NCBI RefSeq assembly: GCF_041381155.1
Contig: NC_091134.1
Coordinates: forward strand, 36,973,338 to 37,037,337
Source: Argopecten irradians
Lineage: Eukaryota > Mollusca > Bivalvia > Pectinida > Pectinidae
DNA length: 64,000 nucleotides
Direction of reading: 5' to 3'
Under the pieces are notes generated by a model, which was not told the DNA's origin, ran no database searches, and worked only from the letters and a program-made list of their open reading frames with translations. Below are positions 355 through 60,060 of this stretch, in pieces; position 1 is the first letter of the stretch; every line of letters begins with the position of its first letter. Both the position numbers and the translations under genes were made by a program.

Positions 355-3300
355 AATTTGACATAATTTTTTAGCAGGCTCAGATGGGTTTTTTTCATTG
401 ATTAAAATCAGATCAAGCATCATACCTTTGAGAAGTCCTATGGCAGCCTCAGCTGATAAGTTGAAAGTATCTATAGCTTGTACAATTTGTAAAAGCCCCT
501 GAAAATGGTCGATCATCTTCTCCCGACACGTCGTTGATATAGACTGGAGAGAATTGGCAGCTACAGTGGCGAGCTTTGGGTCCTGTAGTCCTCGCAGTAG
601 GAACTGCAGCACAGGGTCTGTCGGGAAAAATTTGTTATTATTTAATAGAGAAATAGAAAATATTGAATCAACTTTAAAACTGTAATGTGGAGTAATTTTC
701 TAGATATTGCGTTTTTGAGGATTTCTTCTTGACTTAATATTATTCCGTATCATTAACTAATTCACTTCTGAAGACATCAAGACTAGACCAGTCCATTACA
801 AAATTTCAGGAGTGAATGTGTAAGTACCTAGGAACTCCGGGTGCTTCTCTATCCATTCTGATAGCTCCCCAAACAGGCGTATACTGGTGTGTCTCACCGA
901 CACATGGGCTGTATCGGGGATAGACAGGATAGCTTTGACAACTTCTGGTACAATCTCGTTCTCATCCCTAGAAAAAAATATAATGTACTGTCAATTCAAA
1001 ATCAGACAATATAGTCAACATAAAAATACTTAAACGGACAATACATTCAAAATATAATTCAATTCAATGCCAAAAATGAACATTTCGGACAATGTAGTCC
1101 ACGAGTCTACAATGAATATCAAGACCTGTGAACAGTTTATTTTCAATGTGACATTTTCTTGCCTTATGACTTTTCCATTGCAACTTACTGTCAACGCAAC
1201 AATAGTGTGAACAGTTTAGGTTAATTACTACATCAGGATGCTGTCGCTGTTACCTGGCACGTTCTCGCTACACTCTCGATTACTTGGTCACAGTTTTCGT
1301 GATGTTATCTCGATGGTGCCGGCAACTATTTCATATTATTTCTCATCACCCATATAACCATTGCACACAAACATACATAGAGTAACAAGTTTGAATTTTG
1401 TCTATTTACAATACTAACAAGTTTGAAATACATTATGTCTAATTACAACATTTACAGTAACTAGTTTGAACTATGTCTATTTACAATACTTATAATAACC
1501 AATTTCAATTTTGTTTATTTACAATACTTACGGTAACAAGTTTTTGGCTACAGCAGTCATTACAAACAGAGAGGCCTCTGTTACCTCCCAGGATGTTGAT
1601 GATGTCTGTGACTTTAAGTTTTCAAACATCTGTAAAAGATATTCGTTTTTGATGAAGATTCAACATTAAAATTTTAGTCATATATTTCCAAATTCAAGTA
1701 AAAGGCCTATTGAACTTGTGCTTAATAGAACTTCAGCAATATTCTTTTCGTAATTATTAATAGACACAATATTTGAGATGCGATTTATATAAGACTGTTT
1801 GTGGAGACAATAATCGTCAAAGAAAGTCTTTTATATCAATGTTAAAAGTTGCTGATCATCAATAACACAACTTACCTGGTTAAAACATCGAGATGATCCC
1901 ACAATAAATATCACATCTTTAATCAGCTCTGACACACGTATCCTGAACTCGCCGAAGTCATCCGATTCATCAGGCACGCCTTCCTGTAAATTGGGGATCA
2001 AAGGGAACCAAATTAATTCCAACATTTTGAAATGTCTTGCAATATATTATAAATGACCAGATCATCATCGAATATGTCAGTCAATGTCTTTTCTTCAGAA
2101 TGATTTTTCACAGAAACAAGAAATTAATTAAAGCGACCCAAAATGAGTTTCTTCTGACTGAGATGGAAAATACAGGACCATCACTGTAAAATTGGAAGTC
2201 TGATGACATTCGTAAGAGATTGTTATTGAGATCGCCTTATTACATTTGAACACAATGTGGCAGATTGTATGAAGTAGAACAAATATGAACAAGGACATAG
2301 TCATTCAGATCCCCCGCCAATGGAGATATCAAAGCTGAAGTAAGTTTGATTGTGGAGACTTATGTGTATGGAAAAAAAACCAGGAAAAAGTGCAAAAAAT
2401 GAAAACCTAAAGATAGCAAAAGGTACTACTAGACCATAAAATGAATGTGTCTATGAAGTGGAAATATCTCTGCTGGTTATAGAGTTATGCTCCGGAAATA
2501 AACCTGCTACAAAAATATGATATTTTCAGCAATGTCTCTATGGTTACAGAAAAAAGCACAATAAGTGAAAACCTAAAAATAGCAAAAGGCACTACTAGAC
2601 CATAAGAACAATGTGTCTATGAAGTTTCATGGAAATATCTCTGCTGGTTTTAGAGTTGTGCTCCGGAAACGATTCTTACACAAAAATCTGCCATTTTCAG
2701 CAATGTTTCCATGGTTACAGAAAAAAGTACAAAAAGTGAAAACCTTAAAATAGCAAAACGCACTACTAGACCATAAGACTAATGTGCCTATGGAGTTCTG
2801 TGCATATATCTCAACCGGTTTTCAAGTTATGCTGCGGAAACGAACCTGGTACAAAAATATGATATTTTCAGCAATGTTTCCATGGTTACAGAAAAAGTGC
2901 AAAAAATGAAAACCTAAAAATAGCAAAAGGCACTACTAGACCATAAGACTAATGTGTCTATGGAGTTCCTTGCATATATCTCAACTGGTTTTCCAGTTAT
3001 GCTGCGGAAACGAACCTGGTACAAAAATATAATATTTTCAGCAATGTTTCCATGGTTACGGAAAAAATGAAAACCTAAAAATAGCAAAAGGCACTACTAG
3101 ACCATAAGACCAATATGTGTATGAAGTTTCGTGGAAATATCTCTACTGGTTTTAGAGTTATGCTCCGGAAACCATTCGGACGGACGGACGGAACCCATTT
3201 GTATATCCCCTTCGTTGGGCGGGGATAACAACACTCCTGTGTTCTCCATTTGCTGTTGGGGTGTAATTTCCCCCCCCCCCCCCCAACCTTGTACATATGA

Positions 3301-6300: not shown

Positions 6301-9300
6301 ACCAATGGCTTATGAACGAAACAATATTTAGAGATATTCTGATCAACACAAAAAGTTTGCACTGTCATGATCTGCAGAAGAACAATAACCTAGAATGATC
6401 TGATGACAAAAACTGTCTATTAGTTTGATTTGACTTACTAAATGACATTACAAAAGTGATACCTAGGTGTTTTTTTTTAATTTTCTTATGATTCATACAT
6501 ACCAGTAACTGTAAAACCACAGAGGAGGCCTTTGTAAGCTCCTCCATAATATCATTTCTTCTGTTGGATCCTAGGCGCAGTGATCGACTGTTTACCTGAT
6601 TAAGTGGAGAGTCTATCAATTAGCAAACAAGTACATTTCTATTTCTTACATAATTTCGAAAGTAGGTTAACTATGATAAGGACTTCCTCTTAATAACATG
6701 AAGGACAAGTGGTAAAATGTCAGACATCTTAACCACTTTACCACCAAGGAACTCTAAATTTGAAGAGACAAATCTAACGCATAAATCAGTTTTAAAACTA
6801 CCAACCTAGAAATTATTTTGCTTAATTAAAAGTCACTGCTGGCATGTCTTATAACTAAATCACCCTTAATCAAAATTGATATATATTATTTTGGAAAAAG
6901 ACTGTCAATTAAGGTCAATATTGTCTTAGAATTATTATTGGTGATATCTTACTTCTTCTGGTATGACAGTCAGCACTTCTAACAGGAACGGTAGCTGTTG
7001 AACATTACTGCCAAACCTACACAGACAAACATCTGAGTCAGCAGAAACATAAACAATACATTGACAAGTCAACAAACCAGAACGTTTGTATACTGTTATT
7101 ACACATACTGTTGAACATTACTGCCAAACCTACACAGACAAACATCCGAGTCAGCAGAAACATAAACAATACATTGACAAGTCAACAAACCAGAACGTTT
7201 GTATACTGTTATTACACATACTGTTGAACATTACTGCCAAACCTACACAGACAAACATCCGAGTCAGCAGAAACATAAACAATACAATTACAAGTCAACA
7301 AACCAGAACGTTTGTATACTGTTATTACACATACTGCTGAACATTACTGCCAAACCTACACAGACAAACATCCGAGTCAGCAGAAACATAAACAATACAA
7401 TTACAAGTCAACAAGCCAGAACGTTTGTATACTGTTATTACACATACTGTTGAACATTACTGCCAAACCTACACAGACAAACATCCGAGTCAGCAGAAAC
7501 ATAAACAATACAATTACAAGTCAACAAACCAGAATGTTTGTATACTGTTATTACACATACTGCTGAACATTACTGCCAAACCTACACAGACAAACATCCG
7601 AGTCAGCAGAAACATAAACAATACAATTACAAGTCAACAAGCCAGAACGTTTGTATACTGTTATTACACATACTGTTGAACATTACTGCCAAACCTACAC
7701 AGACAAACATCCGAGTCAGCAGAAACATAAACAGTACATTTACAAGTCAACAAGCCAGAACGTTTGTATACTGTTATTACACATACTGTTGAACATTACT
7801 GCCAAACCTACACAGACAAACATCCGAGTCAGCAGAAACATAAACAATACATTTACAAGTCAACAAGCCAGAACGTTTGTATACTGTTATTACACATACT
7901 GTTGAACATTACTGCCAAACCTACACAGACAAACATCCGAGTCAGCAGAAACATAAACAGTACATTGACAAGTCAACAAGCCAGAACGTTTGTATACTGT
8001 TATTACACATACTGTTGAACATTACTGCCAAACCTACACAGACAAACATCCGAGTCAGCAGAAACATAAACAAGACATTTACAAGTCAACAAGCCAGAAC
8101 GTTTGTATACTGTTATTACACATACTGTTGAACATTACTGCCAAACCTACACAGACAAACATCCGAGTCAGCAGAAACATAAACAGTACATTTACAAGTC
8201 AACAAGCCAGAACGTTTGTATACTGTTATTACACATACTGTTGAACATTACTGCCAAACCTACACAGACAAACATCCGAGTCAGCAGAAACATAAACAAT
8301 ACAATTACAAGTCAACAAACCAGAACGTTTGTATACTGTTATTACACATACTGTTGAACATTACTGCCAAACCTACACAGACAAACATCCGAGTCAGCAG
8401 AAACATAAACAGTACATTTACAAGTCAACAAACCAGAACGTTTGTATACTGTTATTACACATACTGTTGAACATTACTGCCAAACCTACACAGACAAACA
8501 TCCGAGTCAGCAGAAACATAAACAATACATTACAAGTCAACAAGCCAGAATGTTTGTATACTGTTATTACACATACTGTTGAACATTACTGCCAAACCTA
8601 CACAGACAAACATCCGAGTCAGCAGAAACATAAACAATACATTGACAAGTCAACAAGCCAGAACGTTTGTATACTGTTATTACACATACTGTTGAACATT
8701 ACTGCCAAACCTACACAGACAAACATCCAGTCAGCAGAAACATAAACATACATTACAAGTCAACAAACCAGAACGTTTGTATACTGTTATTACACATACT
8801 GTTGAACATTACTGCCAAACCTACACAGACAAACATCCGAGTCAGCAGAAACATAAACATTACATTGACAAGTCAACAAACCAGAATTTGTATACTGTTA
8901 TTACACATACTGTTGAACATTACTGCCAAACCTACACAGACAAACATCCGAGTCAGCAGAAACATAAACAGTACATTGACAAGTCAACAAGCCAGAATTT
9001 TGTATACTGTTATTACACATACTGTTGAACATTACTGCCAAACCTACACAGACAAACATCCGAGTCAGCAGAAACATAAACAAGACATTTACAAGTCAAC
9101 AAGCCAGAACGTTTGTATACTGTTATTACACATACTGTTGAACATTACTGCCAAACCTACACAGACAAACATCCGAGTCAGCAGAAACATAAACAATACA
9201 ATTACAAGTCAACAAACCAGAATGTTTGTATACTGTTATTACACATACTGTTGAACATTACTGCCAAACCTACACAGACAAACATCTGAGTCAGCAGAAA

Positions 9301-12300
9301 CATAAATAATACAATTACAAGTCAACAAACCAGAACGTTTGTATACTGTTATTACACATACTGCAGTATTTCAGAATCAACTCAAACTCAATATTTATAA
9401 TAAATGAATATAGTTCTGAGATAATTAATCTCTATCAATTCAAACAATTGGAAGTTCAGACCATTATACAGTATATTGACTTTACATCTGTACAAACTGA
9501 ACCTTTAACTCCGACCATTGAAATATATTTTCTCTACCTTTTTTCAAACTCAGACTATCAGGTACATACCTTTGCACCAGCTCCAATGTGGCATCTTTCC
9601 ATGCAGCCATTTGCAATGCAAGGTCAGCCAGGGCAAGACTGAGCTAAGGGAAAAATTAACAGAAGAGTAAATAAACATGTTATAAACATAACAAGATAAC
9701 AACATTTTATTCCCAGAGCAAAGAGCAGACTAAGTAAGTTGATAACTTCATATGTAATTATCTACATATTTGACTTATAATCATTTAGTATGCAAAGATT
9801 CATTTATACTTTCTAGTTCATTTTGTCTGAATTTCTAGAAATTTTATTATCATGATCCAGAATTGTTCTAATGTACTTAGCAAAGTTCTTACCAACTGCT
9901 TTTTATTTTTTTATTTAGGAATTCCATGTTTGCTGTAAAACACATGTTGGTATGTCTGTTCCTTCCTTTTGTTTTCCATCTCCTTAATTTATAAAACTTA
10001 CCTGTGTAACAATAATAGCCTGTGTGTCTCCAGATATCTTCCCAGCATGCTCCAGTAAGGAATCCTTCAAATACTGTAATCATAAAATGTTACAACACTT
10101 ACTTTTAATGGTTAATATATCAGACTTCCTGTACATTTTATGATAAACACTGGTATGTTATATTGCAACATTTTTTTTCTTTGACAACAAATTCTGAGGG
10201 ATTGAACAGCAGAAATTGTTCATATGTGGATATCTCAAGTATGAAATTAGAAATTTAGAAATTTAAATACCAGGTAACGCCCTTTAAAATACATTTTGAT
10301 CAAATCCACTATTTTAAACACGGTGAACCATAGGTATAAGATCAAACCATGTACAATGCTGAATGGTCTATTCATTTAAGATTAACTTTATATCATGCAG
10401 ATTTCTGAGAAATGGTGATTTGACTTCTGAAACTCCTAAAAGTCAAGGGTCATCTGGATGCCCTGGTTACTAAATGGAAAACACCCAATGAGGAGTTATA
10501 CTTACACCATGGGAATCAACAGGAAGCTCATGGAAGGAATACTGAATCTGAAAGTTAGAAATAAATGAAGACTCGTGAATACATGTACCTGATCCAGATA
10601 ATAAAATTTAATCATGGACTCATGGTTCTGTGCTGCTAATAAACAAGTTTAATTTCCCTTCAATTTGTGAGTCTGTAATTTCACTAACAGTATGTCTAAT
10701 GGTTTTTTCTCTCCATTCCAAGGACCAAGGTGGCAAGTCTTTGTTTTATAATTCTAACCAAAAAGTTTTTATGATCAATTTTCTTGTAGATATGTAGACA
10801 AGGATCACTACTTGTGTTAGTGTATCCGGTCAGCATTTTAGTTACATCCGATAACTACCTTATACATTTCTTATGGTAAAAATACTCCTCAAAGTAATGA
10901 AATTCCTGTACTAACGACTGACTTCACATATAGTATAATGAATAAATTAAGTGTTAAGACAACAGTGTTGTTATCTGAAACTGGGTTGTCACTAATATAA
11001 CGCTTATAGCTTTCAATTGGCCTATGCAAACGCTCCAGTGAGTGTGATGTGCGCAAGTGCTGTGTGCAAAAGAAACCATGTGCAGTAAATAGGCCTAAGA
11101 CTTTGATATTGTTAGGGGTTTCACCGATTTCAACTCATCATCATGGTTTTATCAATAACAAACAAAATAAATCTAATTCAAAGCAATAATTCTTAGTCAT
11201 ATGATTTTTCTCGAAAGATGTAGGCGATTGTTATGGAATCCAGACGAAGTATATATGACGAATCAATGTACAAATGTAACATTACCTTTGTCCTCATTGT
11301 TTGTGCAGCAAAGTAACAAGATTCGAGTGTGTGCTGTTGCCGTAGTAACTGGTCTGAAATCTGCCAAGCACATACCTGTAATAATCAATGATGATTATAT
11401 TTAAAGTCATATTGTTATTAGTTTTAGATTAAATTACATAGATGTATCAATATATATATAAGAATAGATGTAATTATATCAGATAATAAGAGCTTGTCAG
11501 TGCTCCAGATAATTTGAGGGTGGGTAATTGTACTAATATTTTTGAAAGAGAGAGGTACAACTCTGAGTTCTGTGTGAACCCAAAACTTAACAGAGATATT
11601 TTGATAAACGTTACATGGTTTTAGTATAAAGTAATTGATCATTACTTTATACTTTATATTGTCTCTTGAAAAGAGCTTTTTTTCTTTCGGGCTTCGCCCT
11701 TCGAGAAAATAACTCTTTCCAGGAAGACAATTCCCTTCACAGAGGGTCATAATTACATATTGTACAGATACGCATTCACACAGAGGGTAATTGACAGGTT
11801 TTCAATATTTTCAATGGGTATTTTACCCGTTAATAGCTCAAGATACTCTGGCCCTGACACCAGACTTCGACATTATAATAGATACCTGGTAGATGTCTGG
11901 TTTATTAGAGCCACAGCGCACTAGTACATGAATGTGTTGAACACGCTGACTATATATTTATATATATATATTCAGACTGACCACCAAGAATCGTGACTAA
12001 CCTTGATTTTTTTTCAACAAATGAAAAATTCATCTACCCAAATACAGCAATCTGTCGAGATTAGAGGCAATTTGAATACTATGAGAAAATGGCAATGACA
12101 AAGAGGGAAATTTAAAGTTGTGGTAAAGAAACTACCGTGTTAACACAATAGAATATGCATGCAGGATAAAATTGATAGCTATGAGATGATAAAATATTCA
12201 TTTGTTGAAAAGACCAAGGTAAGTGGGGATTCAATTGTTTTTGTTGAGTTACACCTTTTCATGTACTAGTGTGCTCTGGCCCTAAACCTCATAATGTCTT

Positions 12301-17351: not shown

Positions 17352-20300
17352 ATGGATGCTGACGGCCTGCCCCTTGTAGGTCCCGGGGTGGACTATACAA
17401 AGGTAAACTTTATAATATATAACCGGTCAGCTGGTCACCTGGAAGGCGACTAAATATCGGATGTTTGCCTCCCCTAGATCAGTATCAGAATCAGGCTGTC
17501 AGGTGTTTTAAGTTCTTGTATTATAACCAACGTACATGTAAACACTAAATAAGTATTATAGATTATATCAAAAGCAAATAGATAAATTCGAATTTGAAAT
17601 AAAGATAATAAATCTTAATTTAATCTAGAATCAATTGTTTGGATAGTGGATATAGTGTAAGGTGCTTATACCCTCATGATCAGGTTTGGGACCATCCCGT
17701 ATATGCAGGATAGTCCTGCATTTGAGTAATAGTCCTGTATTTGAGGGATAAATTTGTTACTCAAATGCAGGATTACGTGAAATGAAAATGGATAAAGTTG
17801 TTTTAAAAATTTGTATCAAAAAAGGGCGTCATCATTTTCAGATACCCATATAACTAATTGAAAACTTATGTATTTGTTTATGAACTATTGAATTCTATTA
17901 TCTCACTTTGTAATAAAGTGACAATTTAGGTGCTCTCCATAGACTACAGTGTATAGCCATCAGGGAAATTTAGTGCAAATGTCATGGTTGATTGACTTTT
18001 ACCTGTGTTCTATTTTTAGCCCCATAGTAAGCAATAGAGGTGATAGTGTTTGTGACTTTTACCAACATTTAGATGATGAAATTTGTTTCCATTTGAGTAA
18101 TAATGTGGAAAGTTGTATTAGTGATGATGCCTTATAAAAATTATGAGTTGTATTAGTGACATATTCAAATCAAAAAAAATTATGATGCCTTATAAAAATT
18201 ATGATGCCCTTTTTTGATGACAATGTTTAAATCAACTTTATCACTTTTCATTTCATAGAATCCTGCATTTGCGTAACAAAATTATCCCTCAAATACAGGA
18301 CTATTACTCAAATCCAGGACTATCCTGCATATACGGGATGGTCCCCAACCTGATGATCACCTTACATGCACTGTCACAATTGTGTCTTATAATTCTGCCA
18401 TACTGTACCTGTGTGTATATGAATGTTAGATCATGGATTAACTCCAAATTATCAATTGTAAAATTTAAAAATTATTCAAATTAAACCGGAAGATGAAATT
18501 TTCTAATATAATTTAACATTTAGTGTCTAAACTATTTATCTGTATATTTTTAGGTAGAGGCCATACACCAAAAGCGAACACTCGCCTTCCTGAACCACTT
18601 TGTGAGCCACACAGCCAGCTTCCTGAACAGGTTTTCTTGTGTATGTGAGGAGAAACTGGATCACATGTCGAGTCGGCTTAACCAGTTAGAGATCACGATG
18701 AACATTCTAGAGGCAAAGGTAAAAAAGTGGCATTTAAATTTTTGAAATTTCCATTTAACAAATAAATTCAATTGTAATATTTAACAGTAATATGTCTGTA
18801 TAATCAGTCACTAAGATTCAGACATGAGCTCACTGTATTTACTGTATCCCCTTATCATCCATAAGTTGTTAACCATTGTTTGTGGGGTTTTTTCTGCCAG
18901 CTGACATCAATACCAGGGTTAGAGAATGTTACAGCTCCAACAAGTGGATCTGCAGCAACTACAGAGTCCCCAGCAACAAATACTCAACAACCAGCTGCTG
19001 CAACTGGTCAACAGCAAGCAGCCAATCCACCAGTCACTCCAGGTCCTCCCCCTGTAAGTATATAGCCCACCAGGTGCTCCATGCCCTCCCCCTAGTAAGT
19101 ATAACCCCCCAGCATGCAGGCGCTCCCCCTGTAAGTATAATCCACCAGGCACTCCAGGCTCTCCCCCTGTAAGTATAACCCTCCAGACGCTCTCCCTGTA
19201 AGTATAACCCACCAGGAGCTCCCCCTGTAAGTATAACCCTCCAGATGCTCCCTCTGTAATTATAACCCACCAGGCACTCCCCTTGTAAGTCTAACCACCA
19301 GGCTCTCCCTCTGTAAGTATAACCCTCCAGACGCTCTCCCTGTAAATATAACCCACCAGGCACTCCCCTTGTAAGTCTAACCACCAGGCTCTCCCCCTGT
19401 AAGTATAACCCTCCAGACGCTCTCCCTGTAAATATAACCCACCAGGAGCTCCCCCTGTAAGTATAACCCTCCAGATGCTCCCTCTGTAATTATAACCCAC
19501 CAGGCACTCCCCTTGTAAGTCTAACCACCAGGCTCTCCCTCTGTAAGTATAACCCTCCAGACGCTCTCCCTGTAAATATAACCCACCAGGCACTCCCCTT
19601 GTAAGTCTAACCACCAGGCTCTCCCCCTGTAAGTATAACCCTCCAGACGCTCTCCCTGTAAATATAACCCACCAGGAGCTCCCCCTGTAAGTATAACCCT
19701 CCAGATGCTCCCTCTGTAATTATAACCCACCAGGCACTCCCATTGTAAGTCTAACCACCAGGCTCTCCCTCTGTAAGTATATCCCACCATACATTCCTTA
19801 AATTTAAGGAATCCCTTAACTTAAAATTCTCCAAAGAAAACTTTTACAGATTTTAAAGAAGGCTCCTTAACTTAATATTGTTCCTTTACTTTTGTAATGC
19901 TTTTCTACAGGGAAATTTAAATTAAGATATCCCTTAAAGTTAAGAAATGCTCATGAAACTGGGCCCAGGTGCTCCAGGCCCTCCCCCCTGTAAGTATAGC
20001 ATACCAGACACTCCAGGCCCTCCTACTGTAAGTATAACCCACCAGGCACTCCAGGCCCTCCCTCTGTAAGTATAAACCACCAGGTGCTCCAGACCCTCCC
20101 CCTGTAAGTATAACCCACCAGGTGTTCCAGGCTCTCCCCCTGTACGTATAACCCACCAGGTGCTCCAGGCCTTCCCCCTGTAAGTATAACCCACCAGGTG
20201 CTCCAGGCCCTCCCCCTGTAAATATAACCCACCAGGTGCTCCAGGCCCTCCCCTGTAAGTATAAACCACCAGGCGCTCCAGGCCCTCCCCCGTAAGTATT

Positions 20301-23300
20301 ACCCACCAGGTGCTCCAGGCCCTCCCTCTCTGTAAGTATAACCCACCAGGCGCTCCATGCCCTCCACCTGGAAGTATAACCAACCAGGTGCTCCAGGCCC
20401 TCCCTCTGTTTGTATAACCCACCAGGTGCTCCAGGCCCTCCCTCTGTTTGTATAACCCACCAGGTGCTCCAGGCCGTCCCTCTGTAAGTATAACCCACCA
20501 GGTGCTCCAGACCTTCCCCCTGTAAGTATAACCCACCAGGTGCTCCAGGCCCTCCCTCTGTTTGTATAACCCACCAGGTGCTCCAGGCCCTCCCTCTGTT
20601 TGTATAACCCACCAGTGCTCCAGGCCCTCCCTCTGTAAGTATAACCCACCAGATGCCCTTTGTAATTATAAGGTTGTTCCCCCAGAAAATATAACCATTC
20701 GTGTTACCCCATTAAGTACAACTTACAATGCACTCATTACGAGTACAACAAGATGCTTCACTTTCCAGTATTATTTAAGAAAAATAAGCCGTGTGTCCAG
20801 TGACATTATTTTGGCGTCAGCGACATTATCTATTTGTGGCATGACATACCTTTCTTTGGAGAAAAAATATTAAAAGGTTACCTTCCATTTTATGGACAAA
20901 AAATGTTTTTATTCCCACAAATATGAACTTTGTGAAATCGTTAAATAATATTAATATTAAGTTTAAGAATATTTCTTTCCTGATTTTATAACATGAATAA
21001 TTATACTGTACTGTCTCTTGCTTCAGCACTTGCTGCATATCAAATATTTATTTAGTCTTCTATTATATGTGTGTAAATGTCAATTCATTCTGTATATGTT
21101 TTGTTGATAGCCCCCAGACGCTCCAGAAGCTCCACCGGCTCCAGTGGAAGAAGAAAAACCAGCTAATCCTGTTTCCAAAGATCCACGCTATGCAAAATAC
21201 TTCAAGATGCTTCAAGTGGTAAATGTTTTAAGACTTTGCAACATTTGAGAGTCATCCTTGCCACAGTTATCTCCCCTTCAATAGTATCAATACTGTATCA
21301 ACTGGTTGGGGTTCGTTTAATGTTTTTTGTGTGTGTGAGAGTGTGAATAATGAATTTTTGAAGGTGAAATATATTTAATTTTTCATGATGATAAATGAAA
21401 ACATTTCATGAGGGTCATATATTTACCGAATATACAGATAAACTTATGATTTCATGATAATGAAATATAAAAATAGAAATGTCAAAAGTTTTATGAATGT
21501 CAAATATAGAATTTTATGACAGTTAGATACATATGTGTATAGAAATCTATGAGCGTCACGTGATTGTAATTACAGGGTGTACCAGAAGGAGCTATCAGGC
21601 CAAAAATGAAAATGGATGGACTGGATCCAGACTTACTTAGGTAAAGTGATACTATTTGTAATTTCTTGTTGGATATTTGGTTTGGCCTATTATCATGTCT
21701 AGGGTCCCATGAACAGCCAGGGTCATTTACTGTCGTGACTGCCTAACCGTTGACGAATAATATGTAGTAGTTATGCAGTAGTTGTTCGGTGTGTACTGGG
21801 GCTATATTTAGAATTTCTACAGTGATTAATAAAGTAGGCATGGCTTGTTCTGCATTGTAGTAATCTCGTGATCGTTCAGGATACACGAGACTTAGTCAAT
21901 AAAATAAAACATGGCATTGCGCTACGCTAACAAACTTGGTCTTATGTTTTCGAGTGGTGTATTCACCGAAGATAGCGTTCGGGATACAATACTGCATTAT
22001 CATTACAGAGGACTTTCTTATATAGAACAAATAATCATACCCTGGCTCCACTCCTTTCCTGGCAGGGTATGAATTCCACCCCAGTGATCCACATTGGACA
22101 CTTTGAGACTGTTAAAAATATATTTTTTGGGTACATGTAATATACTTATGTAATTGTATTTTTTTCTCTAACAATGTTAGAGGTATAGCACGACGAGACA
22201 CTTTTGATCATTACGTCGTGTCTAACAGAAGTTTCTCAATATCGAGATCTAATATTATTGGATTACTGTATTGTTCTGACATCTATGATCAATATTAAAT
22301 TCACAAACCTTTCCATTATAATGTTTCATCAACTATTAGTGGTAAAATCCAAGGCAAACATAACACATTTTTCTGTTCAAATACGCCGCCATGTTTAATT
22401 TACAGATGAAATGAAACACTCGCCAGGTAGAATACATGTATGTTTAAAAGTTTTAAAAAGCCAACAAACTAAGAATAAACATGGTGAAACTGAACAGATA
22501 TTAGTATTATATGTATTTAGAATTTAGCGAAAAAGATTTTGTTAAAGTTTATGTTAAAAACCTTGTTTCTTTCGTAGTGAAAATTTGTAGGTCATTCCAT
22601 ATATGGTACTAGTTGCCATATTTGGAGCGCGAAACTTTCTGATGAGAAGCATTGATCATGGCAGCCAAGTGAGCTGTGTCGATGTGAGCCATTCAAAAAT
22701 GCTTCAAAATAAAATTTAGACATGGAGGTGGGTAAATAAATAATCATTTTATGTTTAGAATGTTTGATATTTTTTAATTTAATGACAAAATTACATGACA
22801 CACATGAAATGTAACATTTTCATCGCTGGATGTTTTGCATCACTACGGTCAATGGGATGGAATCGTAGCTCAGACGACGACCATCTGTCAGAAATCTTCC
22901 GTCCGTCGTTCAGAACTACGTCATACATCTGCCATGATGTTTCGTTTTTGTTTCATCGTGGAAAGAGAGATACCTGGATGTTACCTATGAACCTTCTGTC
23001 ACCGGTGCCCGCAATAGCCACGCCTACTCGCTGTCAGGTTTACCTAGTTCTAAATATAGTCCGAGTACACACCGAACAACTACTGCAGCCGCGCGATAAC
23101 TACTACACAATATTCGTCAACGGTAAGGCAGTCACGACAGTAAGGAATCTAGTCGGAGACCATGTGTAACGTGACATAGACAAATATGTCACATGACTTG
23201 GGATGTAATGCTATATATGAGTGGTTGTGGTGACCAAGTATCTAAGATGTCCTGACATATTTCTTAAAGCCGTTCGCCTCTGGGTCTTGAATTCTAATCC

Positions 23301-28619: not shown

Positions 28620-29640
28620 ACCAGTGACATAAATAGAACAGTAATATAAATAGATTATCTGAAAAAGGTTGGTAACTTCAAATGATTAATGATATATACT
28701 AGTCAATGCACGTAGATCAGTTGTATGCTAATAAAAGCTCCGTGAATAGGCTAGTGACATAAATAGGTCGATACTTAAAACCACTAAGAAGAACACCGAT
28801 TAAGACAATAGTTGACTAAGGTTTTATCGTAGATTGCATGATGATCAACAATTCAAGCGCACGCCTTCCTTCTATGACGTCTTTGGCTTGATTGCAATAT
28901 GTATGTTATTACCCCCTGCGAGACCTCAGCAAAAACGACCATCAAAATGCCATACATAGATAGGTTTAATCAGGTTTGTCGTGGTAGAGATGTATTATAT
29001 GGAGAGGACAAGAAGGGAGGTCATTATTCATGGCGGTACGACAGTCGTGAAGGTGCCGACCGTTAAGTAAGACTATCGCCAGCGTGATTTATCGGTAAAA
29101 CCATTTACATCCCAGTAATTTGATTACTAGTCTGTGCACGGCCGTCCGATAGTGGCGAGATACAGAGGTCGCTAGTTACCACTAGTGACAGATTTGTTTT
29201 CCTGGAAACAAATTGTTTGTAATTGAATAACGATGTTTGATCAAGCTATATTAGGGTATCTGTAAATACTACATGTCCAATTAAGGAATGCTTCCATCAA
29301 AGTTATATAGGATCTTAGACCGGATTATCATTCTTAGAAATATCTTTTTGAGGACAAGAAGGGAAAATATGATACAATATCTTACGGAACAAAGGACAAA
29401 GATATAACAAATCAATGACAAGTTTCAATGCTAAATGTAGCGAAAATCCGAATAATTCTTTATCAAACAAGCTGTAAACAGTATGTTCAAAATGGAGACG
29501 GGAAGTGCCAAGGTCTGTGATTTCTCCACAAATTTTACTACGGTTCCAAAATCCTTTACATCGTCAAATAACTCTGGCTATTTAAAAGACGTAAAGAAAT
29601 CCAAATCAACGAAATCGCATACTGACCATGGAGATACATA
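28620..29640. other. Intergenic, no gene seen
   Basis: AT-rich sequence with no exon-like conserved reading, between the degenerate repeat and the 31-bp array. Confidence 0.5.
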
Positions 29641-32600
29641 CTGAATCACACATTGATCATCAGGAGACATGCTGTACCGCACATAGATCACCAAGAGACA
29701 TACTGTACCACACATTGATCACCAGGAGACATACTGTACCACACACTGATCAACAGGAGACATACTGTACCACACATTGATCACCAGGAGACATACTGTA
29801 CCACACATTGATCACCAGGAGACATACTGTACCACACATTGATCACCAGGAGACATACTGTACCACACACATTGATCACCAGGAGACATACTGTACCACA
29901 CATTGATCACCAGGAGACATACTGTACCACACATTATCACAGTAGAACATCTGTACACAATTGATCACAGAGACTACTGTACCACACATTGATCACCAGG
30001 AGACATACTGTACCACACATTGATCACCAGGAGACATACTGTACACACACATTGATCACCAGGAGACATACTGTACACACACATTGATCACCAGGACACA
30101 TACTGTACCACACATTGATCACCAGGAGACATACTGTACCACACATTGATCACCAGGAGACATACTGTACCACACATTGATCACCAGGAGACATACTGTA
30201 CCACACTATCACGGACATACTGTCAACATGATCACAGGAGACATACTGTACACCACACATTGATCACCAGGAGACATACTGTACCACACATTGATCACCA
30301 GGAGACATACTGTACACACACACATAGATCACCAGGAGACATACTGTACCACACATTGATCACCAGGAGACATACTGTACCACACACATTGATCACCAGA
30401 AAGACACATACTGTACAACACATTGATCACCAGGAGACATACTGTACCACACATTGATCACCAGGAGACATACTGTACCACACATTGATCACCAGGAGAC
30501 ATACTGTACCACACATTGATCACCAGGAGACATACTGCCCCGCATTGTTCACCAGGAGACATACTGTACCACACATTGATCACCAGGAGACATACTGTAC
30601 CACACACATTGATCACCAGGAGACATACTGTACCACACATTGATCACCAGGAGACATACTGTACCACACATTGATCACCAGGAGACATACTGTACCACAC
30701 ATTGATCACCAGGAGACATACTGTACCACACATTGATCACCAGGAGACATACTGTACCACACATTGATCACCAGGAGACATACTGTACCACACACATTGA
30801 TCACCAGGAGACATACTGTACAACACATTGATCACCAGGAGACATACTGTACCACACACATTGATCACCAGGAGACATACTGTACCACACATTGATCACC
30901 AGGAGACATACTGTACACACATTGATCACAGGAGACATACTGTACACACACATTGATCACCAGGAGACATACTGTACCACACATTGATCACCAGGGGACA
31001 TACTGTACCACACACATTGATCACCAGGGGACATACTGTACCACACATTGATCACCAGGGACATACTGTACCACACATTGATCACCAGGAGACATACTGT
31101 ACCACACATTGATCACAGGAGACATACTGTACCACACATTGATCACCAGGAGACATACTGTACCACACACATTGATCACCAGGAGACATACTGTACCACA
31201 CATTGATCACCAGGAGACATACTGTACCACACATTGATCACCAGGAGACATACTGTACCACACATTGATCACCAGGAGACATACTGTACCACACATGATA
31301 CACACGTAACATTGATCACCAGAGACATACTGTACCACACATTGATCACCAGGAGACATACTGTACCACACATTGATCACCAGGAGACATACTGTACCAC
31401 ACATTGATCACCAGGAGACATACTGTACCACACATTGATCACAAGAGACATTGATCACAATGTACAACACATTGATCACCAGGAGACATACTGTACCACA
31501 CATTGATCACCAGGAGACATACTGTACCACACATTGATCACCAGGAGACATACTGTACCACACATTGATCACCAGGAGACATCTGTACCACATGATACCA
31601 AAGACACATTGATCACCAGGAGACATACTGTACCACACATTGATCACCAGGAGACATACTGTACCACACATTGATCACCAGGAGACATACTGTACCACAC
31701 ATTGATCACCAGGAGACATACTGTACCACACATTGATCACCAGGAGACATACTGTACCACACATTGATCACCAGGAGACATACTGTACCACACATTGATC
31801 ACCAGGAGACATACTGTACCACACATTGATCACCAGGAGACATACTGTACCACACATTGATCACCAGGAGACACATACTGTACCACACATTGATCACCAG
31901 GAGACATACTGTACCACACATTGATCACCAGGAGACATACTGTACCACACATTGATTACGAGGAGACATACTGTACCACACATTGATCACCAGGAAAGAC
32001 ACATACTGTACCACACATTGATCACCAGGAGACATACTGTACCACACATTGATCACCAGGAGACATACTGTCCCACATTGATCACCAGGAGACATACTGT
32101 ACCACACATTGATCACCAGGAGACATACTGTACCACACATTGATCACCAGGAGACATACTGTACCACACATTGATCACCAGGAGACATACTGTACCACAC
32201 ATTGATCACCAGGAGACATACTGTACCACACATTGATCACCAGGAGACATACTGTACCACACATTGATCACCAGGAGACATACTATCCACACATTCATCA
32301 CCAGGAGACATACTGTACCATACATTGATCACCAGGAGACATACTGTACCACACATTGGTTATTTGGAGACATACTGTACCACACATTGATCACCAGGAA
32401 AGACACATACTGTACCGCACATTAATCACCAGGAGACATACCGTGCCACACATTGATCACCAGGAGACATCCTGTAACACACATTGATCACCAGGAGACA
32501 TACTGTCCCACATTGATCACCAGGAGACACACTGCCCCGCATTGTTCACCAGGAGACATACTGTACCACACATTGATCACCAGGAGACATACTGTACCAC

Positions 32601-32935
32601 ACATTGATCACCAGGAGACATACTGTACCACACATTGATCACCAGGAGACATACTGTACCACACATTGATCACCAGGAGACATACTGTACCACACATTGA
32701 TCACCAGGAGACATACTGTACCACACATTGATCACCAGGAGACATACTGTACCACACACATTGATCACCAGGAGACATACTGTACCACACATTGATCACC
32801 AGGAGACATACTGTACCACACATTGATCACCAGGAGACATACTGTACCATACATTGATCACCAGGAGACATACTGTACCACACATTGGTTATTTGGAGAC
32901 ATACTGTACCACACATTGATTTTCTGGGGAATCAG
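29640..32935. repeat. Large 31-bp minisatellite with a BclI-type palindrome per unit
   Basis: About 105 units 'cattgaTGATCA'-type: each reads 'attgatcaccaggagacata' plus 'ctgtaccacac'. Many units are identical over long stretches (31640-31880, 32100-32280). Frequent +2 variants have an extra CA. Several damaged units occur near 29935, 30210, 31295, 31440 and 31590. The last two units at 32350 and 32885 share 'attggttatttggagacata', so a terminal block was duplicated. Small ORFs inside are repeat artefacts. Confidence 0.95.
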
Positions 32936-46400: not shown

Positions 46401-49400
46401 TGCTGTGGTACTTCATACAGATTTTTCTCAAGCATCAGCTAGTAAAGATATTTGGATTTTCCAGCTTTGTGACCAGACAGTAACAAGCATTATTAGATGA
46501 CAGATAGATGGAGTCCTTCGGCGTTATTGAAACCGTTTAGAAACATACAAATCAACCATTTAGCCCTCACTATCAACGGCGTTGATCAGATATTAACGAT
46601 TCTAACCAGAACAAGATAATTAAAAAAAAAAATATACATAGTAGCATTTTATCGCTGACACTACTTCATATATCAGTGACTTGAAAGTCATAGAATACAT
46701 ACAATTACATCATATAGATGAGGTCGATCGCAGATTTTATGGCACAAACCAAGAGCGATATCGACCACATACAAAGGACGGAGCCCGAGGGGTTAAAATT
46801 ACTTTTGGTTTATGCAATAAAACCATGAACGTGTTGAGTTTGCTTTATTATTATTATTGAACGAAATAAAATAATTTTTGAAAACTGATGTGCAAAATTT
46901 ATTTTTACAAGGACTTCCCCTCTTACATATTATTTATAAGTCTGTACTTGCTGTCAATATCAACCCTTCTATTTTTACCTGTAAGCCATGTCGTCGTCCT
47001 CCGCACCCCAGCCCCAGTATTCGTTAGAATACCCATTTACTAACCGGAAGTGCTCCAACGTCATTGCAAGTACTCCGCCAACAAGTAGTTCGTACTTTAA
47101 CCTTCAACAAAAATCATGTATGCAAGGATACATCACCAAAAGCCAATAACTGATCCATACAAACATCAATTCAATTATCTTAATAAGAAAATATTTCGAT
47201 AGAGAAATTATAGCCGATTTCATAAGCTTTCACCTGAATTAGTATTTGTATGTAATGAGATTACAAATGTTTTATAATGGGTTTGTATGACAAATGTGTA
47301 AATGTATCAATTGATATACCTGTAATGCATTTCATCTACGGCCACTGATAGGTGAGTAGGCTGCCATGGACAGGAGTAAAGGTTTCTGTCATTTTCTGGT
47401 ACAAGATCGACGTCATGAAATATCACACAGTTAAAGTTAAAGCGTTTCACCGCCTCTAGGAAAGCAGCATTCATCAAACGGCCTTTGTTGAAAGTTGCGT
47501 TACCGAACTGCAACAAAAAAAATTAGAAACTGTCCACGTTGCCGAAGCCTAACTACTCTATTAGTCTGCAGTAATCCCACAGTGGGTGCTGCTGATGTTC
47601 CACAATTGCCTCAATCAACTAATAAAAGTCACAATAAGGTCTCAATGGAATTAAATTATTTCTTCTGTGAGTTACTTGAGACTTGGATTATCACCAAGAT
47701 GAATATTACTATTGTCTGGTTTTGCCAGGAGAATGGTAAGGTTGCCAAAATGTATTGATAAAGACACTTTATAGATCCTATGATAGGAAATATTCTTTAT
47801 AGATGGCATTCATATTTCTGTATTTCTTTATTATCGACACATTATGTCCTTATTGGTGCCAGTAAAATGTTAATCACTTCATATGGTTGCCATAACTTTG
47901 ATATTACAAACGTTTTGCGACAGTTAGTATTCCAAAATCAAAAAAAAAATGTAAATTCATAAAGCGATTGAGTTATCTACGGTCAATTATTCAAAAAGAC
48001 AATTAGTGAATTTTGCATTTCTCATTTACAGCAAAACCTATGGTAGTCTCTAAAGTTAGCAAGTAGGTAACGAATCATCGTCGAATCTCTAGGGGTTATT
48101 ATCACTTTCGTCAATTACACCCCTGTATATATAATTGATTAGGATTTTAAGTTGGGCGTCGATGGCTCTGTAATATCTTCAAATGGATTCTTTACAGGCT
48201 TTTGACTGGTCAGTTTTTTTCTCTTTAACTGATTTTAGTTTTGCTATGCAATATTCCATGGATAATGATAGTGAGAGTAACCCCTGGAGTAAAGAATAGA
48301 ACATACTACAGTATTCCATAAAATTTCCGATGTACTTCAAAAAATTTTCTCAGTACTATAGTACGTTCAAATAAATATGAAATAATTCCTTTTGAAGCAA
48401 ACTTCATAAACATTCCATTCTAAAGGATTTCTTTCTATATATTTTTTTTAAAATTGTTTTTAAACTTTAATTAACCGTTTGAACAACTGAGCCTTGTACT
48501 TTATTAATGTATCCAAGGTAAATATTTTAGTTCAAAACCAAACACTAATCCTCTAAAGCATTTGAATAAAATCCCGACGGAAATAAAACGCCGCCCACAT
48601 TGAATGGGTGTGTATCCGTACTATTGAGTAATATATCACGTTCACCTATGAAGCAATTTATCCTCAGACCTGTCAGTCTAAAAGTATGTAACACTTAAAT
48701 TTCATGTCTGCTTACCTGTTCCGCTACTAAAATCCTGAACTCTAACTGTTGACGCTGAAGCATGCCGACCAAATTCTGTAGAAGTATTGTTAGATGACGG
48801 CGGCGGTCCCTGAATGGAATCACAATCAGGACCTTGTGTCGGGAAACACAGGCTTGTGGCCTCCAGTACCCGCCCGGAATAACAGCTTGCTTAGACCCCA
48901 GACGACAGGTCGTGTTACAGTTCTGGACAGATCCAACTGAAAAAAAATAGTGAAACATTTTTCATTTCTTTAATTATCACTACAGAAGTTTAGATTCATT
49001 TATCAAGGACGTATTCTAGATTCAACTGAAAATAAGACAGAATCACACCAATAAAAAAACTTTTAATTTTGGAACTGGCTTTGTCAGTGGTAGATTGGAT
49101 TCTCCCATAAGTCTTAGTAAATTGCTCTAGAATGTAAGGTCCAACAAGAAAACACTTTCATTACTCTTTTAATTATCATTACAGAGCAGCATAGATTCAA
49201 GGACATGTTCTTTAAGGGACAAATGGCTATGTAAGGCGTAATTCTACTGAAATTAATGTGAGATCAAACCGATAAACCAACTTTGTGAAACTCGGTTGTT
49301 AACGGTAGCTTACTTTTTGGTGAAATTGGTATGTGTCCTATGGGTAAATAGAATAGAGAAAAGGGAAAATAAAACTGACAAGTGGCTGTAAAAAGTGAGG

Positions 49401-56199: not shown

Positions 56200-59100
56200 T
56201 TTTCATTCATTCATTTTATTCCGTAGGCCTTTCGACCTATAGGTGAAAATAACAACATGTATTTATCAATTGCAACGTACCGATCCATATAAGGAGAGTG
56301 ATCAACAAATATTGGAATATTACATAGGTTCATAATAATAATAATGATATTCATGTAGTAAAATAATATATTATGAATTCAATGCGAGACAGTTGACAGA
56401 TTTCAAACTCAAATCTAATAAATGAAAGATAATTAACAAGGACACTTATATATTACATTTGTTATCTAAATATATATTAATAAGGCTTTCAGTTCCTCCT
56501 TTTGCATGCTAAATATAGATATTTACCTAGATTGGATAATTCTCTTACATTATTAATACTTAGGAGCTGTATTAATTTGAAAACAGATGGTCTTTTATAA
56601 TAGTATTTTTTGATGTATTTCAACCTTAAATCATTATAAAAAGGACACATCAGAATAAAATGAAATTCGTCTTCTACATCTCTTAGGTTACACTTAATAC
56701 ATATTCTATTTCTACGTAAAATGTTATGGTGTCTACCAACCTCAATATTTAAGTTGTGACATGATAATCTAAATTTGGTTATTACATGTTTGTATTTGAC
56801 CTCAATAGATTTACGTAGATAAAATTGGACACAATGATTGTTTATCAAGTGTTGGTATAATGAACCTTTTGGTGAGGCAGATATTTTTGCTACGATGTTT
56901 TGCTTAGTGCTATCAACTAGTCTCTGTTTTATTATTTGAAAAGCAACGTTGTCAGGAATGTAAGTGTCAACCATATAACCGAGTCCTAATAATGCTAATT
57001 CATTCTTAATATTACTTATCCACTCGTCATTTTCGTTCACACGATCATCGAAACAAGTTTTCACAATCAAGTTATCCGTATTTCTGAGCTTTAACCAATA
57101 TTTAAACACTCTTAGTTTTCTAACTACATACATAGGTAAGCGACCTAGTTCACAATATACTAAATCATTACTTGTAGATTTTCTAACTTTTAGAATTCTC
57201 TTACAAAAATTCAAGTGTACCCTTTCTATATCTGGTGCTTTGTGTAGTCCCCAAATTTCGGCTGCATAACATAGAATACTACTTACATGTGAATCAAAAA
57301 CTGAACAATATGTTTCAACATTCAAACAATGATTTTTAAAGGAAGATGCTAATGCAAATAATGCCTTTTTACCTTGTTCTGCAAGATGTTTCTGTGTTTT
57401 TGTAAATTTGCCGTTGTAATTAAAAAACATACCTAAGTATTTGAACGTGTCAACAATTTCTAACATTCATGTTGTCATATTTCCATGATTCATTACTTCG
57501 TAAGTGACCACCGTTTCTAAAAACAATAATTTTCGTTTTTTCGACATTAACCTCCAGGTTCCGGCGTCTAGAATAATCTAATAATGAATTTTACATGCAT
57601 TGCAAACATTCTGGACTATTGGCAAATAGGACCGTGTCGTCAGCATACATTAATAGGAACAAATTAAGCATTTGTAGTTCAATATTAGGACAATTATCAT
57701 TAATAAAACTCATTTCAAAATCATTAACATACATTGAGTAAAGTACAGGTGACAATATTTCCCCTTGTAAGAGTCCGGTTCTGTTCGGGAAGCATTGACT
57801 CAAATGGCCATCGAGTTTTACACAGGCTTTAACATTTTCGTATAATGAAAATATGATTTTTAAAAACTTTCCCCTAATTCCATAATTAATCAGTTTTACT
57901 CCATAACTTTCCTCTATCAATAAAATCGAATGCCTTTCGAAAATCTATAAAACAACAATAAAGTCTTTCCTTATTTCTTAGTTTCTTATTAATTAAAGTT
58001 TGTAATACGAATATGGCGTCTAAAGTTGAAGACCCCCTTCTGAATCCAAATTGTGCATCTGTTAAAATACTATTTTCTTTCTCCCATTTCATGATTCTAT
58101 TATTCAAAATAGTAGTAAATAATTTACCGAAACAACTTACAATAGATATACCTCGATAATTGTTTGTCTCGTTAACACATCCTTTCTTGAAAATCGGAAC
58201 TATGCAAGATTGTGACCAGGACTCGGGGAAAAACCCAGATCTAAAAATAGAATTGAACAATCTTTCCAAATATGGTAATAATATATCTTTTCCGTGAATG
58301 AATATTTCATTCATTATTAAGTCTTCGCTACAACTTTTATGTAACTTCAAATTATTAATAGCACTGATTATTTCTTGGGCTGAGATATTGCAGTCAAGAT
58401 TTTCGTACACAGGTTCCATATCATCTTCAGGAAGGTCTGAGCATTCGCCATTGTTAGCATCCATTAGATTTTTAAAATGTAGATAAAAGTCGTCTATGTC
58501 GAGTGTAGAGTTAACTCTGTTCGTTTTATTTTTCTTAAATAATTTGAAAAACTGTTTCGGGTTACTCTTTTTCAAAAGCTCCAACATATTTCCTTCATAC
58601 CGTTTATACTCCCGTTTTAGTTTATATTCTAATTTTTTAAAATTACGCTTAGCAGTTAATAGTCTGAGGTGCGTTTCATCAGATTTGTCTTTATTAAAAT
58701 TTGACAAAGCTTTCCGGTATTCTTTATAAAGGTGTTTGCATTGAGGAGTAATCCATGGTTTGTCCTCTGTTGAATTAGAAAACTTTCTATCTACCGTATT
58801 ACGAACAGGGTTTTCTCTACACTCACAGAACGGTAAAGTACAATCATTGATTATGTGACATATGTTATTTACACATTCGTTCACCACATTTTGGCTGTTA
58901 AAGTCAACATTAAGTTCTTCATCTATCATCATTTAATTTATCCCTGACTAAATGTATATTTTCTTCTTTCCATCTAACCGACATGCATTGTCCTCTACTG
59001 TATTCGACATTTGAATTTACATTGTCTACAGCTTTTGTAGAAACAGTCTGATTAATTTTTATACTAAAAGTAATGGGACAGTGATCAGAGAAAGTATTGA

Positions 59101-59315
59101 AATTACCGGAAATAAATTTGGTAACGTTTCCTTTTTGCGTATTATCAGTAATCAAATAATCAATGAGACTCTTTCCATTATTATTATAGAAAGTAAAGTT
59201 ACCTATAGCGTCATCTGGGTGTCGTCCATTGACTATACGTAATCCCGATGACTTACACATATCTAGACATAACGCACAATGTTCGGTCACTTTTACGTCA
59301 CGCCGGAATTTCATT
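56200..59315 (-). mobile_element. Frameshifted non-LTR retrotransposon (LINE), 5'-truncated
   Basis: Endonuclease C-terminal part: SGLRIVNGRH and FSDHCPITF (59314-58919). Reverse transcriptase: KPWITPQCK linker, WSQSCIVPIFKKG, NNYRGISIVSCFGKLFT, DAQFGFRRGSSTLDAIF, FIDFRKAFDFIDR (58932-57886). Palm: TGLLQGEILSPVLYSMYVNDF and MYADDTVLFA (57920-57591). Connection LEVNVEKTKIIVFRNGGHLR (another frame, about 57560-57490). C-terminal domain: DTFKYLGMFFNYNG to CIKCNLRDVEDEFHFILMCP (57466-56489). At least four frame breaks (about 58925, 57900, 57590, 57475). The 3' end carries AATAAA and an (AATG)n tail near 56200-56225. Catalytic YADD is intact, but the element cannot make one protein. Confidence 0.9.
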
Positions 59316-59319
59316 GGAA

Positions 59320-60060
59320 AAAGCGTTGAACAGTTAAATGATATAAGCGCAATACTATTTTTTTTAATTGAAAAACAGAAAGGATATATTTATTCAATTA
59401 CGGAAGGACTTTTATCAAAATATTTGTAATATTTATTTTTCTATTTATGTGTTTTTGTTGAGAAAATGACGTTTTTTGGCGCGACAGATATAACACGCAC
59501 CTGTATGCGGTTTCAGTTAAAGTAACACTGTGGTCATACTGAATACCCATTGTGGTAAAATTTGACAAAGAGATTCCCCAAAAACGATTTATCATGATGT
59601 CATTTCGTTATAATGAATTGTGACGTCATACTTCAAAATGGTCGACTTTGTTTGTAGACTTGCCGATCGACAGATCCGAAGAGAAAAGAGAAAAAAGTGA
59701 AAAAACACAAATACACACAGTACAAAACGGTACTAATACATGAGACAGAGACATGAATTGTTAATATAAAAATACGTTTTTCTTCAATTTTAATAACATG
59801 TCAGAAAATATAGACTGCGACGTCGTTCTACTTTTTTATGTTTTCTATTCAGAATAAAAAAAATACGTTTTTGCTCAAATATACGTGTGCGAAATCTCTA
59901 CTGAAAATTAAAAGAAGTATTCGAAAAATTGCGTTTTTTCTTTGTCTTGCAGGTTTGCCGAATGTCGGAAATGGCATTAATTGCGCTCGTCATGTTATAA
60001 GATAATGACGTCTTTTACATTCAATAACGTTACATAAAAGTGACCGAACTTTGTGCGCGA
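59320..60060. other. Flank of the LINE, no gene seen
   Basis: AT-rich, no exon-like reading recognised. Confidence 0.5.

What the first reader, a model, noticed from the sequence alone, without database searches (positions are those of the whole stretch)
6953..9363. About 20 extra copies of a functional-looking splice acceptor in TNPO3 intron 5
The 113-bp unit contains everything a 3' splice site needs on the minus strand: CTGAC branch-point-like sequence, T-rich tract, TGTAG, and the first 22 bases of exon 6. The authentic acceptor (7016) is only the last of ~21 near-identical sites. Use of any upstream copy reads FGSNVQQYV then TAA, a premature stop. TNPO3 imports SR splicing factors, and many splicing regulators use poison exons for feedback, so an array that competes for the spliceosome in this gene could be a dosage-sensitive splicing sensor. 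That role is speculation; the array and sites are direct.
Basis: partly seen in the sequence, partly recalled or inferred. Interest (0 to 1): 0.9.

Follow-up and report, generated by a model that had tools for sequence, protein, structure and literature searches.

The report
Minisatellite copying a splice-site boundary
In this animal's TNPO3 gene a 113-base stretch covering the end of an intron and the start of an exon has been copied 21 times in a row, a real example of an already described kind of repeat whose extra splice sites are probably mostly ignored, although each extra copy could also be read as a tiny in-frame exon.

Summary
The array is real: 21 units of 110-113 bp on the minus strand (9360-6995), each with the exon-6 acceptor of TNPO3 and the first 22 bases of exon 6. 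The 17 TNPO3 exons in the window are open, and no second copy was found. An extra copy is therefore not only a premature stop but also a possible 21-nt in-frame exon (FGSNVQQ). That donor is weak; in 18 of 20 junctions it scores below 15 of 17 native donors. The poison-array reading is weakened and unsupported. Minisatellites of intron-exon boundaries are a described class ("mirages", amphioxus), reported not to disturb regular splicing. A random 113-bp segment in this gene holds a boundary in 31% of placements, and intact sites are expected from the array's youth. I take it as a new, large member of that class, most likely near-neutral, with the last acceptor normally used. RNA, other individuals and other species could not be tested.

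The parts
6995..9360 (-). tandem array, 21 units of 110-113 bp: about 91 nt of intron 5 end (branch-like CTGAC, T-rich tract, TGTAG) plus first 22 nt of exon 6
6953..7016 (-). TNPO3 exon 6 (64 nt); authentic acceptor is that of the last unit
   Evidence: gapless alignment to human transportin-3 chain 4c0o over FGSNVQQ
9570..9643 (-). TNPO3 exon 5 (74 nt), donor AAG|GTATGTAC after 9570
7109..9269 (-). 20 potential 21-nt in-frame exons GTTTGGCAGTAATGTTCA(A/G)CA (first 9269-9249, last 7129-7109) separated by potential introns of 89-92 nt
   Evidence: 21/21 acceptors, 20/20 internal donors CA|GTATGT; frame read from the sequence
9355..9366 (-). upstream edge of array: intronic CTGCAG|TATGTG (break after 9361); shares CAG with the downstream edge CAACAG|CTACCG (7000-6989, break after 6995); pre-existing cryptic donor GTATGT starts at 9361
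7037..7041 (-). branch-point-like CTGAC of the authentic acceptor (A 21 nt before the G of AG)
   Evidence: read; motif judged from recalled consensus
19027..20656 (+). second boundary-spanning minisatellite (38-bp and related units, two blocks) at a WASHC3 (CCDC53) exon donor; authentic donor 19054 is the first copy; 24 exact GTAAGTAT in 18901-20750
1373..1543 (-). third, degenerate boundary-spanning repeat (38 bp x 4.5, 67% matches) at the donor of TNPO3 exon 15 (1531); only the first copy keeps GTAAGT

Best explanation
It is a boundary-spanning minisatellite of the kind called 'mirage' in amphioxus. A 113-bp segment from intron 5 into exon 6 of TNPO3 was duplicated in tandem between two CAG triplets (microhomology; inferred) and then expanded to 21 units by unequal exchange or slippage (inferred). 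The last acceptor, the only one joined to the whole of exon 6 and its donor, makes the normal mRNA (inferred from exon definition and from the published cases). The 20 upstream copies are mostly ignored. When one is used, the result is either an in-frame 7-residue insert through the donor at the unit junction or a premature stop. The array is most likely near-neutral and may vary in copy number between individuals. Shown: the array, both kinds of splice site, the frame, the open reading frame of the 17 exons in the window, no second locus found. Inferred: origin, splicing outcome, neutrality.
For: Array anatomy and edges. The two terminal units alone have A at column 74 while the 19 inner units have G, the edge-exclusion pattern described for mirages; 1 in 210 if the two A copies were placed at random, though it rests on one column. 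Five pairs of non-adjacent identical units point to turnover. TNPO3 is open over the 17 exons in the window, 589 codons, and the own-genome protein search found 16 matches, all at this locus. Collapsed to one unit, intron 5 would be 300 nt; 9 of the other 15 introns are 210-403 nt. A random 113-bp placement includes a boundary in 31% of cases. Three boundary-spanning repeats in one window, in two unrelated genes. The published class, with Adh3 data and globin RT-PCR suggesting undisturbed regular splicing.
Against: No RNA evidence, no second haplotype and no other species was available. The extra acceptors are identical to the authentic one over its last 17 intron bases and are transcribed earlier, so co-transcriptional use of an upstream copy is plausible. 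Elsewhere such repeats have been used: a spliced new intron in potato, retention of one unit in ABCA7, and new introns with alternative transcripts reported for boundary repeats of human paralogs. Only 467 of 12,985 simulated boundary-spanning duplications give an in-frame, stop-free exon with a donor this good, which could hint at selection or at a survival filter (post hoc). In a 200-kb sample of the contig 0 of 41 arrays held a strong donor motif, which speaks against such repeats being common here.
Confidence: 0.8

Rival explanations
1. In-frame microexon array: the units are spliced as 21-nt exons, adding a variable number of FGSNVQQ heptads at the segment matching human TNPO3 residues 133-139 (numbered from the alignment).
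For: 21/21 acceptors and 20/20 donors intact and in frame; the single variable site inside the 21 nt (A/G, G in 2 of 21 units) is synonymous, CAA/CAG. A like event, a tandem duplication over an intron-exon boundary, produced a really spliced intron in potato with 106 RNA-seq reads. An amphioxus PGBD5 gene model takes most of two 108-bp boundary repeats as an exon, a prediction without EST or mRNA support that the authors set aside.
Against: The donor ACA|GTATGT (18 of 20 junctions) scores 5.0, below 15 of 17 native donors; GCA|GTATGT (2 of 20) scores 6.0, below 11 of 17. 47 of 471 intronic GTs scored as well on the earlier 16-donor matrix. One synonymous site is no statistical evidence. Intact sites are expected from youth (P 0.66 that none of 11 variable columns hits the four GT/AG columns).
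Confidence: 0.1
2. Poison-acceptor array: upstream copies make NMD targets and tune TNPO3 dosage, possibly in feedback with SR proteins.
For: Read-through of any upstream copy meets TAA TAA after FGSNVQQYV (read). Poison exons in SR genes are established (background, recalled; abstract of a listed paper).
Against: Each copy has an in-frame exit. A boundary array also occurs at WASHC3. Published mirages are reported not to disturb splicing. Variable columns are not significantly rarer in the splice elements (3 of 11 in 54 of 113 positions, P 0.13).
Confidence: 0.04
3. Assembly artefact or wrong copy number.
For: Long near-identical arrays are easily mis-assembled; a published mirage appears aberrantly assembled in a draft genome.
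Against: Units differ by combinations of 11 variable columns, which a false repeat of one read would not give. Raw reads were not available, so the exact copy number is unchecked.
Confidence: 0.04

Closest known systems
'Mirage' minisatellites of amphioxus (Adh3, globin BflGb6 and BflGb9, TnC, PGBD5)
   Same: Tandem copies of an intron-exon boundary with AG/GT signals. BflGb6 has 150-160 bp units with the 3' end of the intron plus the 5' part of exon 2, concerted inner copies and excluded edges (section 16 of PMC3087553 read; passages of PMC3902484).
   Different: Here 21 units against 6 and 3 in the two BflGb6 haplotypes; another gene and lineage; every internal junction also forms an in-frame donor. 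Length variation and splicing could not be checked.
Intron gain by tandem duplication over an intron-exon boundary, potato RdRp (PMC4974935; abstract and results section read)
   Same: The duplicated segment crosses the 3' splice site, brings branch site, tract and AG along, and activates a cryptic donor.
   Different: There one duplication and a spliced intron shown by RNA-seq, with the donor from exonic sequence; here 20 extra units, and the donor comes from the intronic end of the unit. Splicing not shown.
IFI6 (6-16) minisatellite with multiple splice donor sites (only its title seen, in a reference list; paper not held)
   Same: A minisatellite that multiplies a splice site. The WASHC3 array here is the nearer parallel.
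   Different: Donor, not acceptor; short units (recalled).
ABCA7 intronic VNTR (PMC5954066, passages read)
   Same: Each unit carries a splice site, and retention of one unit has been seen in transcripts.
   Different: 25-bp units with a donor; retention shifts the frame.
Variable internal tandem repeats of human duplicated genes (PMC2812944, passages read)
   Same: Repeats at exon-intron boundaries that may form new introns through cryptic splice sites.
   Different: Mostly short units, about 30 bp repeated 4 times, in recent paralogs.

Membership tests
mirage minisatellite | tandem repeat unit spans an exon-intron boundary of a real gene | tested here: met
mirage minisatellite | units carry AG/GT splice signals | tested here: met
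   21/21 AG, 20/20 internal GT
mirage minisatellite | concerted inner copies, edges excluded from homogenisation | tested here: met
   column 74: A in units 1 and 21 only; rests on one column
mirage minisatellite | length differs between haplotypes | not testable with these tools
   one haplotype held; the 10 DNA matches returned are all this array
mirage minisatellite | regular splicing undisturbed | not testable with these tools
   no RNA data
intron gain by tandem duplication | duplication creates a GT...AG unit with branch site and tract | tested here: met
   branch motif from recalled consensus
intron gain by tandem duplication | the new intron is removed from mRNA | not testable with these tools
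   no RNA data
poison exon with NMD autoregulation | inclusion brings a premature stop | tested here: inconclusive
   stop on read-through, but an in-frame exit by the junction donor in 20 of 20 copies
poison exon with NMD autoregulation | element conserved across species and its use responds to protein level | not testable with these tools
   homologue search switched off; no RNA data

The most novel reading that the evidence does not exclude
The array is a ready-made series of 20 near-identical in-frame 21-nt exons, each spliceable on its own, so that individuals and tissues make TNPO3 with 0 to about 20 extra FGSNVQQ heptads in its N-terminal repeat solenoid: a length-polymorphic, splicing-encoded protein repeat caught at the birth of exons and introns.
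Probability: 0.06. Interest if true: 0.75.

Novelty: new member of a known kind. Interest (0 to 1): 0.38.

Why it matters
Twenty copies of one acceptor-donor cassette in series, in a gene with no second copy found in the assembly, form a natural experiment on how the spliceosome picks one of many near-identical sites (first transcribed, or the one bound to a strong exon). They also show a step towards new exons and introns that is usually invisible because it is old. Three boundary-spanning repeats within 64 kb raise the question whether such repeats are frequent outside amphioxus, where the class was named; the 200-kb sample, without annotated exons, neither shows nor excludes it.

Tried and rejected
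Selection on the splice elements within the array: 3 of 11 variable columns fall in the 54 'functional' columns, P 0.13; not significant.

Special RNA structure of the unit: one unit (7220-7108) folded; z-score -0.76, 42 of 200 shuffles fold as well; nothing.

Acceptor strength by a matrix from native TNPO3 acceptors (15 scored, which missed exon 10; the exon-6 acceptor left out of the matrix): 163 to 196 of 406 intronic AGs (40-48%, by unit type) score as high as the array's acceptors. The small matrix has no power here and was not used; taken at face value it does not mark these acceptors as strong. Donors were scored again with all 17 (native ones leave-one-out, the array's with the full matrix), also with a human-like matrix recalled from memory; both put ACA|GTATGT third from the bottom.

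Other boundaries of TNPO3: 33 were scanned for nearby copies. Only the exon-6 acceptor (20 places at 22 of 28 or better) and the exon-10 acceptor (one place, 23 of 28, at 5568) reach 22; the exon-15 donor reaches 21 twice. The best match over all boundaries in each of 20 block shuffles was 18-22, so the exon-15 match by itself is within chance; it rests on the tandem array found by TRF.

Genome background: 20 stretches of 10 kb of contig C1 hold 41 arrays (period 20 or more, 2.5 copies or more), about 16% of the bases. A strong-donor motif set is in 0 of 41, against 4 of 19 in the window; three of those four rows are the WASHC3 locus and one is the exon-15 repeat. The set does not include this array's donor. 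A wider survey of exon boundaries was not possible.

Papers listed but not opened: those on TNPO3, so whether TNPO3 has poison exons in other animals was not examined.

RNA-borne origin (circular RNA, reverse splicing): rejected by reasoning only, since the unit junction lies inside exon and intron and a CAG microhomology explains it.
Full report
What is there. On the minus strand, between exon 5 (9643-9570) and the body of exon 6 (7016-6953) of TNPO3, lie 21 tandem units of 110-113 bp (17 of 21 are 113 bp). Mean pairwise difference is 3.4 positions of 113. Each unit is the end of the intron (91 nt in a full unit) plus the first 22 nt of exon 6. All 21 have TGTAG|GTTTGG. The last one (7016) leads into the rest of exon 6, so 20 are extra. 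The gene is TNPO3: the 17 exons in the window, with GT-AG introns, join to 589 codons without a stop; the rest of the gene lies outside. Its first 316 residues match human transportin-3 (4c0o, E 3.2e-112), without a gap at FGSNVQQ, which faces YSNDVTS of the human protein. A search of the own 846-Mb assembly with the joined protein gave 16 matches, all at this locus (only best candidates are scored), so no second or processed copy was seen that would relax the gene.

At each of the 20 internal junctions the end of the exon piece meets the start of the intron piece as CAACA|GTATGT (18) or CAGCA|GTATGT (2). This is a donor 21 nt after the acceptor. Exon 5 ends in phase 2 (CAA AG), exon 6 starts G TTT GGC, and the 21-nt piece ends CA, so that CA + G restores CAG. 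One or more extra pieces add FGSNVQQ repeats in frame. The stop (FGSNVQQYV then TAA TAA) follows only if the junction donor is not used. The one variable base within the 21 nt is a synonymous CAA/CAG change, G in two units. The donor is weak. On a matrix from 17 native donors the common form scores 5.0, lower than 15 of the 17 scored leave-one-out (three of them are close, 5.1-5.2), and the rarer form 6.0, lower than 11. On a human-like matrix recalled from memory the common form scores 4.4, against 6.0 or more for 15 of 17 native donors.

Origin. The array starts after intronic CTGCAG and ends with exonic CAACAG, so a duplication between two CAG triplets explains the junction. The intronic copy of GTATGT next to the upstream CAG already existed as the best-scoring cryptic donor of the collapsed 300-nt intron. 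Units 1 and 21 alone have A at column 74; the 19 inner units have G. Five pairs of non-adjacent units are identical. That is the turnover pattern of a minisatellite, with edges left out of homogenisation.

Is it more than a repeat? A 113-bp window placed at random in the collapsed gene holds one of its 33 exon boundaries in 31% of placements, so including a boundary is not remarkable. That no AG or GT is broken in any unit is expected: 0.66 probability for 11 variable columns. Splice elements are not significantly spared (P 0.13). The RNA of one unit is not unusually structured. In a simulation, 15% of boundary-spanning duplications (1965 of 12,985) gave a donor at least as good and 3.6% (467) gave one in frame without a stop. 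This mild oddity was found after the fact; it may be chance, or duplications with a harmless exit may survive better.

Company. The window has two more boundary-spanning repeats. At 19027-20656, units of 38 bp and related lengths at the donor of an exon of WASHC3 (PF10152, E 3.1e-44) give 24 exact GTAAGTAT in 1.85 kb against 7 in the rest of the window on both strands; the authentic donor 19054 is the first copy. At 1373-1543 a degenerate 38-bp repeat spans the donor of TNPO3 exon 15, with only the first copy keeping GTAAGT. In all three the authentic site is the copy next to the whole exon, as exon definition would want (inference). A 200-kb sample of the same contig is about 16% tandem repeats of this size class, with 0 of 41 arrays holding a strong donor motif. 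The sample has no annotated exons, so how common boundary-spanning arrays are remains open, and this count gives no support for their being common.

What is known. Amphioxus globin genes BflGb6 and BflGb9 and Adh3 carry minisatellites of intron-exon boundaries, 'mirages'. Haplotypes of BflGb6 have 6 and 3 units, and the Adh3 data and globin RT-PCR suggest that regular splicing is not disturbed (PMC3087553, section 16 read). PGBD5 and troponin C are further cases; a PGBD5 gene model takes most of two units as an exon, without transcript support (PMC3902484, passages). Results that point the other way also exist. In human paralogs, variable repeats at exon-intron boundaries may form new introns (PMC2812944, passages). 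In potato a duplication across an intron-exon boundary gave a truly spliced new intron by waking a cryptic donor (PMC4974935, abstract and results section). ABCA7 shows a repeat with a donor in each unit, one unit of which can be retained (PMC5954066, passages). Searches for bivalve cases gave 0 papers (microexon + bivalve) and 3 (bivalve + minisatellite + intron + splice). I looked into one of the three, an abalone gene with a minisatellite reported in an intron (passages).

Verdict. The most likely state is a tolerated, probably length-variable minisatellite with normal splicing to the last acceptor. The poison-sensor idea is weakened by the in-frame exit and by a like array in an unrelated gene. 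The in-frame microexon reading is the more interesting one, is not excluded, and can be settled by one RT-PCR.

Changes made on re-check: edge coordinates corrected (9355-9366 and 7000-6989); the donor comparison split by junction type; potential intron lengths given as 89-92 nt; published cases in which repeat splice sites are used added against my reading.

Noticed in passing
19027-20656 (+): WASHC3 (CCDC53) exon donor multiplied in a minisatellite, two blocks; 24 exact GTAAGTAT in 18901-20750; authentic donor is the first (19054), with an in-frame stop just after it.
   Followed up: partly
1373-1543 (-): Degenerate 38-bp repeat over the donor of TNPO3 exon 15, i.e. a second boundary-spanning repeat in the same gene.
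   Followed up: partly
5568 vs 5434 (-): A 20-nt stretch around the TNPO3 exon-10 acceptor recurs 134 nt upstream (19 of 20 bases; 23 of 28 over the boundary); possible decoy acceptor or old duplication.
   Followed up: partly
2384-3172; also L016 338-1003 and L021 2618-3111: A 171-bp tandem repeat in TNPO3 intron 13 whose unit resembles, by eye, arrays elsewhere on the contig: perhaps a dispersed repeat family.
   Followed up: no
29636-32920: 31-bp repeat in about 107 copies.
   Followed up: no
47310-48961 (-): Open stretches that look like beta-1,4-galactosyltransferase exons (recognised by eye, not searched).
   Followed up: no
56492-59389 (-): Long open stretches that look like a LINE-type reverse transcriptase (by eye, not searched).
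   Followed up: no
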